DNA from: Streptomyces sp. SS1-1
GTDB taxonomy: Bacteria; Actinomycetota; Actinomycetes; Streptomycetales; Streptomycetaceae
Direction: 5' to 3'
Assembly: GCF_008973465.1 (NCBI RefSeq)
Contig: NZ_WBXN01000004.1
Span: 1,302,001-1,366,000, forward strand
Length of the DNA stretch: 64,000 bases
Each line of letters begins with the position of its first letter. Position 1 is the stretch's first letter. Both the position numbers and the translations under genes were made by a program. The notes below the pieces were generated by a model. That model saw nothing but the letters and a program-made list of their open reading frames with translations. It searched no databases and was not told the DNA's origin. Of this stretch, positions 15,092 through 17,856 are shown in pieces.

Positions 15092-15672
15092 GTGGGCCCT
15101 CTGAAATGAATCGGGTGGGTGTACTGGGGGCTTGCAGGGGGGTACGTCATGGGTATGTCGGACTTTCCCGAGCTATAGGGAACAAGCGCACGAATACACC
15201 TCAACTCGGTGCGCTGCGGGCGAGCTTAGTCCGACCGGATCATCGCCGTGTCATATTCAGCAAGCACCTGAAATGGCCCGTACGACAGGAGTACCCTCGG
15301 CTCTTTTGCACGCTGGGCATGCGTTCGAACACGCAGTGTCATGGCGTACGGACGTGCGAACGCGACTCACCGTGACGGGTGAGAGGGGCCGTCCCCGGGC
15401 GACGCGAGCGGGCGAGAGGCAGACGGGGCGGGCGAGGCGCGCCAAACGGATGTGGCACGCGAGACGAACCGAACACGCGCCCGCCGCAAGGAGCGAGAAA
15501 CACGAAGGGCGGCGAGAAACACGAAAGGCAAAGAGTCACGCACTCCTTGCCACTCTCAACATATAGCGCACAGGGGGCCTTGCGGCAAGGCCCCCTCGAT
15601 GGCGCACAATCTCCGGTCCGACCAGGAAACACACCTCTTCCCGGCACCTCGGCCTCTGATCGGAGACCCCGC
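15092..15672. other. Divergent control region between cvnA and helR
   Basis: This 580-bp gene-free region must hold the promoters of the conservon (leftward) and of helR (rightward). It is less GC-rich than its surroundings in places. Seen in it are two direct copies of GCGAGAAACACGAARG at 15493-15508 and 15512-15527, a TATAGC-like -10 at 15562-15567, and the RAE palindrome at 15573-15595. Long frames crossing it are compositionally unlike genes. Confidence 0.6.
15573..15595 (+). promoter_or_regulatory. Rifamycin-associated element (RAE)
   Basis: This is a perfect palindrome with 10-base arms, GGGGGCCTTG and CAAGGCCCCC, around CGG. It corresponds to the inverted repeat known from memory as the RAE (core GGGGCTTGCGGCAAG...), found upstream of rifamycin-inactivating genes and helR in actinomycetes. 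It sits just after a TATAGC box and 77 bp before the helR start. Rifamycin induction is inferred, not shown. Confidence 0.8.
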
Positions 15673-17856
15673 TTGCACCCCCTCCCCACCACCGCGTTCG
15701 CCCTCGACGACCGTCGGCGGGCCAAGGCCGACCCCGCCCTGATCGCCGACGACGACCGGCACTTCGCCGCCATCGCCCGCTGCCTCGAGGAGACGACGGC
15801 TGACCTCACCGAGCGGCTCGCCGCCGAACGCAGGGCGGAGGGCGGCCTGGGCCGCCAGGCCATGGACCGGGACACCGAGATCCACCGCCTCACCGCCCGG
15901 CTGCGCACCCTGCGCCGCTTCGGCCTGGACCTGTGCCTGGGCCGGATGGTCTTCGCGGACGACCCGCGGCCCGTGTACGTGGGGCGGCTCGGCCTGACCG
16001 ACAGCACGGGCCGCCGGCTGATGATCGACTGGCGCTCCCCCGCCGCCGAGCCGTTCTTCGGCGCCACCCACGCCCGCCCGATGGGCCTGGCCAGCCGCCG
16101 CCGCTACCGGTGGACCGGCGGCCGGATCAGCGACTACTGGGACGAGGTGTTCACCCCGGACGGCCTGTCCGGGCACGCCGCGCTCGACGACCAGTCCGCG
16201 TTCGTCGCGAGCCTCGCCGGGAACCGCTCGTCCCGGATGCGGGATGTTCTCGGCACCATCCAGGCCGACCAGGACGCCATCATCCGCGCCGGGTCCCGGG
16301 GCGCGCTCGTCGTCGACGGCGGGCCGGGCACCGGCAAGACCGTGGTCGCCCTGCACCGCTCGGCGTACCTCCTGCACGCCGACCCGCGCCTCGGGCACCG
16401 CAGGGGCGGGGTGCTGTTCGTCGGCCCGCACCGGCCCTATCTGGCGTACGTCTCCGACGTGCTCCCCAGCCTCGGCGAGGACGGCGTGCAGACCTGCGTG
16501 CTGCGCGACCTCGTCGCCGAGGGCGCCACCGCCGGCGTCGAGACGGACCCGGAGGTGGCCCGGCTGAAGTCGTCCGCGGACCTGGTGCGGGCGATCGAGA
16601 AGGCCGTGCGCTTCTACGAGGAACCGCCCACCGAGGGCATGACGGTGACGACCCCCTGGTCCGGGATCCGGCTGAGCGCGGGCGACTGGGCGGCGGCGTT
16701 CGACGCGGCGGAACCCGGCACCCCGCACAACGAGGCCCGCGAGCAGGTCTGGGAGGAACTGCTCACCCTCCTGACCGACCGGCACGAGGAGGACGCCTCC
16801 GGCGACGACGCCGAGATCCCCGCGCAGATGCTGCGCCGGGCCCTGGAGCGGCACCGGGAACTGCGGACGGCCTTCGACCGGGCGTGGCCCCTGCTCGAGG
16901 CCGCCGACCTGGTCGGCGACCTGTGGACGGTCCCCGCGTATCTGCGGCTGTGCGCCCCCTGGCTCACCCCGGACGAGGTACGGCTGCTCCAGCGCGAGCG
17001 GCCGGACGCCTGGACGGTGTCCGACCTTCCGTTCCTGGACGCGGCCCGGCAGCGGCTCGGCGACCCGGAGGCGGCCCGGCGCCGTCGGCGGCACGCACGG
17101 ACGCTGGCGGCGCAGCGGGAGCGGATGACACGGGTCGTGGACAACCTGATCGACGCCGTCGCGGACTCGGGCGCGGACGGCGACGACGGCGAGGGCCTGG
17201 TGCGGATGCTGCGCGGCCAGGACGCCCAGGTCAGCCTGGTCGACGAGACGGAGCTCGACGAACCGGACCCGGATCAGCTGGCGGGACCGTTCGCGCACAT
17301 CGTGGTCGACGAGGCGCAGGAACTCACCGACGCCGAGTGGCAGATGCTGCTGCGGCGCTGCCCGTCCCGGAGCTTCACCATCGTCGGTGACCGCGCCCAG
17401 GCCCGGCAGGGCTTCACCGAGTCCTGGCGGGAACGTCTGGAACGGGTCGGCCTGGACCGGGTCGAGGAGGCCTCCCTGACCGTCAACTACCGCACACCGC
17501 GGGAGATCATGGCGGAGGCGGAGCCGGTGATCCGGGCCGTGCTCCCGGACGCCAACGTGCCGACGTCCATCCGCAGCGGAGGCTTCCCCGTCGTGCACGG
17601 CCGGGTCGCGGACCTGGACGCGGTCGTGGACGCCTGGCTGGCCGACAACGCCGACGGGGTCGCCTGTGTCATCGGCGCCCCCGGCTTCCCGTCGGGCGAG
17701 CGGGTGCGGTCCCTTCCGCCGGAGCTGACGAAGGGACTCGAGTTCGACCTGGTCGTGCTGGTGCGGCCCGAGCGGTTCGGTGAGGGCGTCCAGGCCGCCG
17801 TGGACCACTATGTGGCGATGACCCGGGCCACCCGGCACCTCGTCGTCCTGCGGTGA
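15673..17856 (+). CDS. helR: RNA polymerase-recycling helicase-like ATPase HelR (HelD family)
   Basis: The product is about 727 residues. A charged coiled-coil N terminus (about 25-85) is followed by IDWRSPAAEPFF, typical of HelD-type proteins, then the Q-motif IQADQDAIIR and Walker A GGPGTGKT (216-223). Walker B is VVDEAQELTDAEW (about 542-554). Late motifs are SLTVNYRTPREI, KGLEFDLVVLV and AMTRATRHL. HelR removes stalled or rifamycin-bound RNA polymerase from DNA and confers rifamycin tolerance in Streptomyces. TTG 15673 was chosen because CGGAGA lies 6 bases upstream and the family N terminus (LPTTAFALDDRRRAKAD) follows. The upstream RAE supports this identity over a generic UvrD-like helicase. 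Confidence 0.88.
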   Translation: MHPLPTTAFALDDRRRAKADPALIADDDRHFAAIARCLEETTADLTERLAAERRAEGGLGRQAMDRDTEIHRLTARLRTLRRFGLDLCLGRMVFADDPRPVYVGRLGLTDSTGRRLMIDWRSPAAEPFFGATHARPMGLASRRRYRWTGGRISDYWDEVFTPDGLSGHAALDDQSAFVASLAGNRSSRMRDVLGTIQADQDAIIRAGSRGALVVDGGPGTGKTVVALHRSAYLLHADPRLGHRRGGVLFVGPHRPYLAYVSDVLPSLGEDGVQTCVLRDLVAEGATAGVETDPEVARLKSSADLVRAIEKAVRFYEEPPTEGMTVTTPWSGIRLSAGDWAAAFDAAEPGTPHNEAREQVWEELLTLLTDRHEEDASGDDAEIPAQMLRRALERHRELRTAFDRAWPLLEAADLVGDLWTVPAYLRLCAPWLTPDEVRLLQRERPDAWTVSDLPFLDAARQRLGDPEAARRRRRHARTLAAQRERMTRVVDNLIDAVADSGADGDDGEGLVRMLRGQDAQVSLVDETELDEPDPDQLAGPFAHIVVDEAQELTDAEWQMLLRRCPSRSFTIVGDRAQARQGFTESWRERLERVGLDRVEEASLTVNYRTPREIMAEAEPVIRAVLPDANVPTSIRSGGFPVVHGRVADLDAVVDAWLADNADGVACVIGAPGFPSGERVRSLPPELTKGLEFDLVVLVRPERFGEGVQAAVDHYVAMTRATRHLVVLR

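What the first reader, a model, noticed from the sequence alone, without database searches (positions are those of the whole stretch)
15573..15595. RAE palindrome directly in front of a HelR-type helicase
The 23-bp perfect palindrome (arms GGGGGCCTTG / CAAGGCCCCC) matches the rifamycin-associated element and sits between a TATAGC box and the TTG start of a HelD/HelR-family gene. This predicts rifamycin-inducible expression and rifamycin tolerance by RNA polymerase displacement. It is known in Streptomyces venezuelae; here it is linked to a conservon and the paf-tat cluster.
Basis: partly seen in the sequence, partly recalled or inferred. Interest (0 to 1): 0.7.

Follow-up and report, generated by a model that had tools for sequence, protein, structure and literature searches.

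The report
Two-way promoter behind rifamycin alarm
In front of a gene for HelR, a protein predicted to free RNA polymerase from rifamycin antibiotics, this actinobacterial genome carries the known rifamycin-response palindrome, and in related genomes that palindrome sits at the centre of two back-to-back promoter-like sequences, so RNA polymerase itself is likely the drug sensor.

Summary
A perfect 23-bp palindrome (15573-15595) lies 77 bp before the TTG start of a HelR gene (NF041254, 1255.6 bits, cut-off 750). Only one other place in the 7.8-Mb genome comes within one mismatch; it precedes a rifamycin phosphotransferase (rph) gene. This is a rifamycin-associated element (RAE), so RAE-helR is known biology; 77 of 80 helR relatives have an RAE before helR or before an rgt-helR pair.

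The "TATAGC box" reads as a sense -10 (TANNNT) in 0 of 191 gene-oriented sites. On the other strand, overlapping bases give TANNNT exactly 19 nt from TTGCCG in the RAE in 186 of 191 (58 of 61 fetched after the prediction was noted). A mirror-image sense promoter (TTGCGG-19-NANNNT) is in 188 of 191. The RAE is thus the predicted shared -35 core of two back-to-back promoters; in this window and many relatives the antisense one runs straight into a terminator-like hairpin.

I favour RNA polymerase competition at this core as the sensor (inferred, untested); an unknown RAE-binding protein is the main rival. The conservon/paf-tat neighbourhood is real here but not conserved.

The parts
15573..15595 (.). 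RAE palindrome, GGGGGCCTTG-CGG-CAAGGCCCCC
   Evidence: a near-identical element precedes an rph gene elsewhere in the genome
15580..15585 (+). predicted -35 (TTGCGG) of the sense helR promoter, inside the RAE
   Evidence: agrees with mycobacterial helD promoter 2, whose -35 overlaps the RAE (PMC10719064 passage)
15605..15610 (+). predicted -10 (CACAAT) of the sense promoter, 19-nt spacer; start of RNA predicted near 15616
   Evidence: sense NANNNT at this position in 188 of 191 sites, CANNNT in 177 of 191
15583..15588 (-). predicted -35 (TTGCCG) of the antisense promoter, overlapping the sense -35
   Evidence: antisense TANNNT here in 186 of 191 sites; 58 of 61 in the set fetched after the prediction was noted
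15527..15551 (-). hairpin of a predicted intrinsic terminator; its first base is the predicted antisense +1 (15551)
   Evidence: -16.2 kcal/mol, z -3.15, 2 of 200 shuffles as good; found by a blind scan, 0.5 expected; recurs with different arm sequences
15515..15526 (-). U-rich tail of the antisense terminator (UUUCGUGUUUCU)
15662..15665 (+). GGAG, likely ribosome-binding site, 7 nt before the TTG start
   Evidence: sequence
15673..17856 (+). helR, RNA polymerase recycling motor ATPase HelR (727 aa, TTG start)
   Evidence: NF041254 1255.6 bits vs cut-off 750; HelD chain of 6yxu and 7 further entries, E 1.5e-103

Best explanation
The palindrome is the rifamycin-associated element of a helR gene, and it forms the predicted shared -35 core of two back-to-back promoter-like sequences, one pointing into helR and one pointing away, so that RNA polymerase itself likely acts as the rifamycin sensor by choosing between them. 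Shown by sequence comparison: the sense pair TTGCGG-19-CANNNT, the antisense pair TTGCCG-19-TANNNT, and in this window and many relatives a terminator-like hairpin that begins at the predicted antisense start. Inferred: both promoters are active; polymerases on them exclude each other because they need the same bases; without drug the antisense start is favoured (it keeps T at -12 where the sense -10 keeps C) and yields a terminated RNA of about 40 nt, keeping helR low; with sub-inhibitory rifamycin the antisense start is disabled more than the sense start and helR expression rises. HelR would then displace rifamycin from RNA polymerase, as published for its relatives. Rough separate odds: RAE/HelR identity 0.97, two-promoter anatomy 0.85, polymerase competition as sensor 0.4.
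For: Identity. All six gene classes counted show the layout; antisense TANNNT at spacer 19: HelR 112 of 114, mycobacterial-type HelD 4 of 4, Rox 38 of 39 (two queries), Rph 15 of 15, Rgt 13 of 14, Arr 4 of 5. In 78 dereplicated sites outside the genus, found with a pattern that held only the RAE and oriented by the downstream gene, antisense TANNNT occurs at spacer 19 in 73 and at any other spacer from 12 to 26 in at most 3; sense NANNNT at spacer 19 in 76 and CANNNT in 70. Within the antisense -10 the positions -12, -11 and -7 are fixed (76 of 78 each) while -10 and -9 vary, the signature of a promoter. In the 61 oriented sites fetched after the prediction was written down (note), 58 fit. In 52 distinct sites found through the HelR protein, both -10s are present in 52. 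CC on the sense strand, a GG start for the antisense RNA, is conserved at the predicted +1/+2 (0.95 and 0.87). A hairpin starting within about 2 nt of there is found in 38 of 106 dereplicated sites versus 3.4% of shuffles, with 4.4 U in the next 8 nt. Among 45 stems there are 40 different 5' arms, and 414 of 426 pairs form, versus a mean of 314 when arms are re-dealt. A blind scan of 15200-15900 reported this terminator and no other (0.5 expected by chance). Closest tested analogue: B. subtilis helD, where a strong antisense promoter (spacer 19, alternatively 18) and a terminated ~90-nt RNA go with low helD, and rifampicin relieves it, in the authors' model without a dedicated regulator (PMC12802891).
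Against: No transcript was measured. The generic sigma-70 scan (spacers 16-18) found no promoter in the region; both predicted spacers are 19. The -35s are part of the search pattern, so their conservation is by construction; only the -10s, starts and hairpins are independent evidence. The geometry differs from B. subtilis: there the promoters face each other, and a 17-bp shortening that made them clash abolished induction. Here they are back to back, a drug-arrested polymerase on the antisense side should also block the sense side, and no facing sense promoter is over-represented upstream (0 of 106 sites, 1.4 in shuffles). The GGG and CCC arms outside both -35 hexamers are 91-100% conserved (partly by construction, but also intact in 49 of 52 sites found through the HelR protein), which promoter overlap alone does not explain and a bound protein would. 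A strong hairpin was found in only 20 of 78 non-genus sites (21 of 32 others). By matches to TATAAT the two -10s are about equal, so the strength order is a guess.
Confidence: 0.5

Rival explanations
1. The RAE is the operator of an unknown dimeric regulator that responds to rifamycin or to stalled RNA polymerase; the regulator sits on the palindrome and switches the sense promoter, and the antisense promoter is a by-product of the symmetry that is silenced by its terminator.
For: GGG/CCC arms beyond the -35 hexamers are 91-100% conserved and symmetric (partly by construction; 49 of 52 protein-found sites). The papers seen favour an unknown factor (PMC10719064; PMC12802891). Deleting half of the RAE of helR abolished induction (PMC10719064 passage), but that deletion also removes the promoter 2 -35.
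Against: No regulator is named in the passages seen. It does not explain why both -10s are locked at 19 nt, why T at -12 on one side (189 of 191) and C on the other (180 of 191) are kept, or why terminator-like hairpins recur with changing sequence.
Confidence: 0.35
2. Ordinary tandem sense promoters: TATAGC is the -10 of an upstream sense promoter P1 and the RAE lies between P1 and P2.
For: TATAGC is exact in 49 of 52 sites found through the HelR protein, and M. smegmatis helD has a mapped promoter 1 start about 20 bp upstream of the RAE (PMC10719064).
Against: The block reads as sense TANNNT in 0 of 191 sites. Outside the genus exact TATAGC remains in 43 of 78, while the bases that read antisense -12, -11 and -7 remain in 76 of 78 each; the C at its sixth position mirrors a G on the other side (-16 of both promoters; 72 and 69 of 78). 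No -35 partner with suitable spacing was found by inspection.
Confidence: 0.08
3. The B. subtilis convergent dual-promoter alarm in its original form: the antisense promoter collides with a facing sense promoter upstream.
For: Antisense promoter with 19-bp spacer and a terminated antisense RNA.
Against: No over-represented facing sense promoter within 150 bp upstream (TTG-N16..19-TANNNT in 0 of 106 sites, 1.4 in shuffles); the mapped promoter-2 type starts on the far side of the RAE.
Confidence: 0.05

Closest known systems
RAE-controlled helR of Streptomyces venezuelae (SVEN_6029) and M. abscessus helR (Surette 2022, Hurst-Hess 2022; papers not held, known here only through passages of PMC10719064)
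   Same: 19-bp palindrome before a class II HelD/HelR gene; sense promoter whose -35 overlaps the RAE
   Different: No antisense promoter or antisense terminator is described in the passages seen; here both are predicted. In this genome the other RAE gene is rph, where S. venezuelae has rox.
B. subtilis helD/pps dual-promoter rifampicin alarm (PMC12802891)
   Same: Antisense promoter with 19-nt spacer, short terminated antisense RNA, same gene family, no dedicated regulator in the authors' model
   Different: There convergent with starts 39 bp apart; here back-to-back, sharing the -35 palindrome, predicted starts about 65 bp apart
Bidirectional bacterial promoters with a shared symmetric -10 (recalled, no call)
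   Same: One short symmetric core serves both directions
   Different: Here the shared part is the -35, and the antisense unit is often closed by its own terminator-like hairpin

Membership tests
Rifamycin-associated element (RAE) | about 19-bp palindrome of the conserved type | tested here: met
   matches the sites of the class-wide set. The published consensus letters were not read, only recalled.
Rifamycin-associated element (RAE) | lies in the 5' region of rifamycin-resistance genes | tested here: met
   helR here, rph-like gene at the genome's other site; a HelR/HelD, Rox, Rgt, Rph or Arr relative behind 143 of 158 loci examined, 13 not oriented, 2 lacking flank
Rifamycin-associated element (RAE) | overlaps the -35 of a sense promoter | tested here: met
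   by sequence only: TTGCGG-19-NANNNT in 188 of 191
Rifamycin-associated element (RAE) | mediates induction by rifamycins | not testable with these tools
   needs RT-qPCR or reporter
HelR (class II HelD) | matches the curated HelR model above cut-off | tested here: met
   NF041254 1255.6 vs 750 bits; HelR_2 and HelD_MYCSM models below cut-off; only copy over cut-off in the genome
HelR (class II HelD) | primary-channel loop with acidic tip near the rifampicin pocket | tested here: inconclusive
   an acid-rich stretch (DGDDGEG) lies between the WTVSD and VVDEAQ motifs; DGEG recurs in 22 of 27 relatives aligned; its place in the structure was not modelled
HelR (class II HelD) | dissociates rifamycin from RNA polymerase | not testable with these tools
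   needs biochemistry
B. subtilis-type dual-promoter alarm | convergent sense and antisense promoters | tested here: not met
   predicted promoters are back to back; no facing sense promoter upstream, 0 of 106
B. subtilis-type dual-promoter alarm | antisense promoter with terminated short RNA | tested here: met
   sequence only

The most novel reading that the evidence does not exclude
The RAE of Actinomycetes is not a regulator's operator but the shared -35 heart of a two-way promoter: RNA polymerase is its own rifamycin sensor, flipping from a short terminated antisense unit to the resistance gene when the drug poisons the antisense start. One regulator-free design would then drive helR, rph, rgt, rox and arr across the class.
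Probability: 0.38. Interest if true: 0.82.

Novelty: new variant of a known kind. Interest (0 to 1): 0.62.

Why it matters
How the RAE senses rifamycins is stated as unsolved in 2026 (PMC12802891, passage). If the RAE is a two-way promoter core, the missing regulator may not exist, and the question becomes testable with purified polymerase and one template. It would also join the actinobacterial and Bacillus helD alarms as two solutions to one principle: using antisense initiation to sense an RNA polymerase inhibitor. The RAE with its twin -10s is also a sharper search key for rifamycin-defence genes; it already points to a DrrA-like transporter.

Tried and rejected
RNA-hairpin or cruciform reading of the RAE: some sites extend the palindrome outwards, so pairing of outer flanks was tested on 199 sites. 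One outer position pair paired clearly above expectation, one marginally, the rest not, and the pair next to CTTG/CAAG paired less than expected (24% vs 42%). That set counted palindromic sites in both orientations, so the test is weak; it gave little support.

Leader-peptide reading: a GTGCGTGTG-like start downstream of many RAEs turned out in the cases looked at to be the start of an rgt gene, not a general leader ORF.

Rfam: no credible match around the element; two chance-level hits lie inside the gene.

Conservon/paf-tat linkage: rejected as a conserved feature.

helR without RAE: 27 of 80 relatives lacked an RAE within 1 kb. In 24 of them the RAE sits 1.33-1.71 kb upstream in front of an rgt-like gene that precedes helR. 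Of the other three, two have under 520 bp of upstream sequence and one (L070) shows none.

Sites dropped before the main counts: of 158 loci examined, 13 could not be oriented by a downstream resistance gene and 2 (L162, L165) lacked flank. The 13, looked at separately: 7 have both -10s, one only the antisense, one only the sense, four neither; the last four differ from the RAE pattern at one position and have no resistance gene that my queries found. Identical sites were counted once (191 distinct). Bias: 29 of the 191 sites came from a pattern that already held TATAGC; the conservation profile was drawn from hits selected for TATAGC and is not used as evidence for it. The 103 non-genus sites and the 52 sites found through the HelR protein carry no such bias.

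Labels: Rox (L111) passes its curated cut-off; Rgt (L115, 502.7 bits vs 800) and Rph (L002, 911.9 vs 1700, partial piece) do not reach theirs; Arr and mycobacterial-type HelD were named from recalled sequence features.

Papers: no description of an antisense promoter at the RAE was seen in searches (listings) or in the passages and sections read of PMC10719064 and PMC12802891; PMC13246000 was only searched for terms, none found. The primary RAE/HelR papers (2014, 2022) were not seen; the one I asked for is not held.

Full report
WHAT IS THERE. The window shows GGGGGCCTTGCGGCAAGGCCCCC at 15573-15595, TATAGC at 15562-15567, GGAG at 15662-15665 and an in-frame TTG at 15673. The core is unique in the window, with 0.03 matches expected by chance at up to 3 mismatches. 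In the whole 7.8-Mb genome only two places come within one mismatch of the core pattern: this one and one at contig C4:7260193-7260213. The second lies directly in front of a gene whose first 491 residues match rifamycin-inactivating phosphotransferase Rph (911.9 bits; only positions 1-457 of the 865-position model were in the fetched piece, so the full-length cut-off of 1700 could not be reached). The gene behind the window's palindrome matches the curated HelR model at 1255.6 bits (cut-off 750), and the mycobacterial HelD model and the second HelR model below their cut-offs. It aligns over nearly its whole length with M. smegmatis HelD structures. It is the only copy over cut-off in the genome; further HelD-like genes match below it, and the genome has no further RAE within one mismatch.

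A KNOWN PAIR. Papers seen in part describe the RAE as a 19-bp palindrome before rifamycin-resistance genes and before helR, with the -35 of mycobacterial helD promoter 2 overlapping the RAE, and call its mechanism unknown (PMC10719064 passages; PMC10194278 passage; PMC12802891 passages). The pairing in the window is therefore a new member of a known kind. Among 199 same-genus genomes, 167 carry the composite TATAGC-RAE pattern at up to 3 mismatches, with no match to the reversed control in any row. Among 394 genomes of the class 184 carry the RAE alone at up to 1 mismatch, and among 396 of the phylum 50 do; in these two looser searches the reversed control also matched in some rows, so a few hits are chance. 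Of 80 helR relatives, 53 have an RAE within 1 kb upstream and 24 more have it in front of an rgt-like gene that precedes helR.

WHAT THE TATAGC BOX REALLY IS. In distant families the TATAGC hexamer loosens (exact in 43 of 78 dereplicated non-genus sites), but A-n-n-n-T-A just to its left stays. Read on the other strand this is TANNNT, 19 nt from the TTGCCG in the middle of the RAE. Exactly mirrored, the sense strand has TTGCGG, 19 nt, and C-A-n-n-n-T. I wrote this down as a prediction, then fetched further loci and oriented all sites by the resistance gene downstream, not by these bases. In 191 distinct sites the antisense TANNNT is present in 186 and the sense NANNNT in 188; the TATAGC block reads as a sense TANNNT in none. 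In 78 dereplicated non-genus sites, TANNNT occurs at spacer 19 in 73 and at the other spacers tested (12 to 26) in 0 to 3. In the 52 distinct sites found through the HelR protein, both -10s are present in 52. The -12 base is T on the antisense side in 189 of 191 and C on the sense side in 180 of 191, so the element has a fixed polarity. The -35 hexamers themselves are part of the search pattern; their conservation is not evidence.

THE ANTISENSE UNIT HAS ITS OWN TERMINATOR. Seven bases past the antisense -10 lies a conserved CC on the sense strand (0.95 and 0.87 in non-genus sites), that is, GG as first bases of an antisense RNA. In the window a hairpin starts exactly there: GGCAAGGAGT-gcgtg-ACTCTTTGCC followed by UUUCGUGUUU, -16.2 kcal/mol. 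A blind scan of 15200-15900 found this and no other terminator (0.5 expected in shuffles); it found no promoter at its fixed 16-18 nt spacing. Across 106 dereplicated sites 38 have such a hairpin starting within about 2 nt of there, against 3.4% of shuffles, with on average 4.4 U in the next 8 bases; hairpin starts with a U-rich tail peak at this position. The arms change sequence together: 40 different 5' arms among 45 stems, 414 of 426 positions paired against a mean of 314 when arms are re-dealt (stems were selected for pairing, so the comparison with shuffles is the fairer control). The hairpin is common among the 32 other dereplicated sites (21 of 32) and less so outside the genus (20 of 78).

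MECHANISM. The best tested analogue is B. subtilis helD. There an antisense promoter with a 19-bp spacer (the authors note an 18-bp alternative) makes a terminated RNA of about 90 nt, is the stronger of two convergent promoters, and keeps helD low; with rifampicin it falls and helD rises; destroying the antisense -10 makes the promoter fusion high and uninducible (PMC12802891, sections read). The RAE locus has the same ingredients in another geometry: back to back, sharing the -35. I therefore favour competition of RNA polymerase between the two starts as the sensor. This step is inferred. A serious objection is that a drug-arrested polymerase on the antisense start should also block the sense start, and that in B. 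subtilis bringing the promoters too close abolished induction. The conserved GGG/CCC arms outside the -35s (intact in 49 of 52 protein-found sites) are unexplained by this model and leave room for a bound protein. No facing sense promoter is over-represented upstream (0 of 106), so the Bacillus model cannot simply be copied.

NEIGHBOURHOOD. The conservon and the DSHCT helicase, TatC, WYL and Pup ligase genes flank helR here, but of 59 helR loci with full flanks none has the conservon kinase and one has the helY-like gene. The linkage is local.

VERDICT. Observation confirmed; interpretation right on RAE and HelR, wrong on the promoter box and on the importance of the neighbours. The new content is the two-promoter anatomy of the RAE, strongly supported by sequence and directly testable.

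Noticed in passing
L002:1-1521 (G000 C4:7258693-7260213, - strand): The genome's only other RAE drives a rifamycin phosphotransferase-like (rph) gene just downstream of what looks like a catalase gene (recalled), with the same twin -10s and antisense terminator-like hairpin.
   Followed up: yes
L218:1248-2048, L220:79-1005, L222: In three genomes of one non-Streptomyces family an RAE with both -10s precedes a DrrA-type (drug exporter) ABC ATPase (TIGR01188 over cut-off for the first two; the third not tested): a candidate RAE target class beyond those in my query set.
   Followed up: partly
L010, L012, L027, L086 and 20 other helR loci: In 24 of 80 helR relatives the RAE drives an rgt-like glycosyltransferase gene followed by helR, a likely two-gene rifamycin-defence operon.
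   Followed up: yes
L199 and L229: RAEs in front of what look like decayed rgt and rox genes (start kept, frame lost): promoters outliving their genes. Described only.
   Followed up: no
G000 C4:4987581, 3255962, 3346735, 2764024: Further HelD-like genes in the same genome, all below the HelR cut-off; the genome has no RAE left over for them.
   Followed up: partly
15574-15577 and 15591-15593: The GGG/CCC arms of the RAE lie outside both predicted -35 hexamers yet are highly conserved across the class; the two-promoter model does not explain them.
   Followed up: partly
15551: The predicted antisense start lies 22 bp upstream of the RAE, close to where a promoter 1 start is reported for M. smegmatis helD (about 20 bp upstream); the strand of that published start deserves a re-check.
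   Followed up: no
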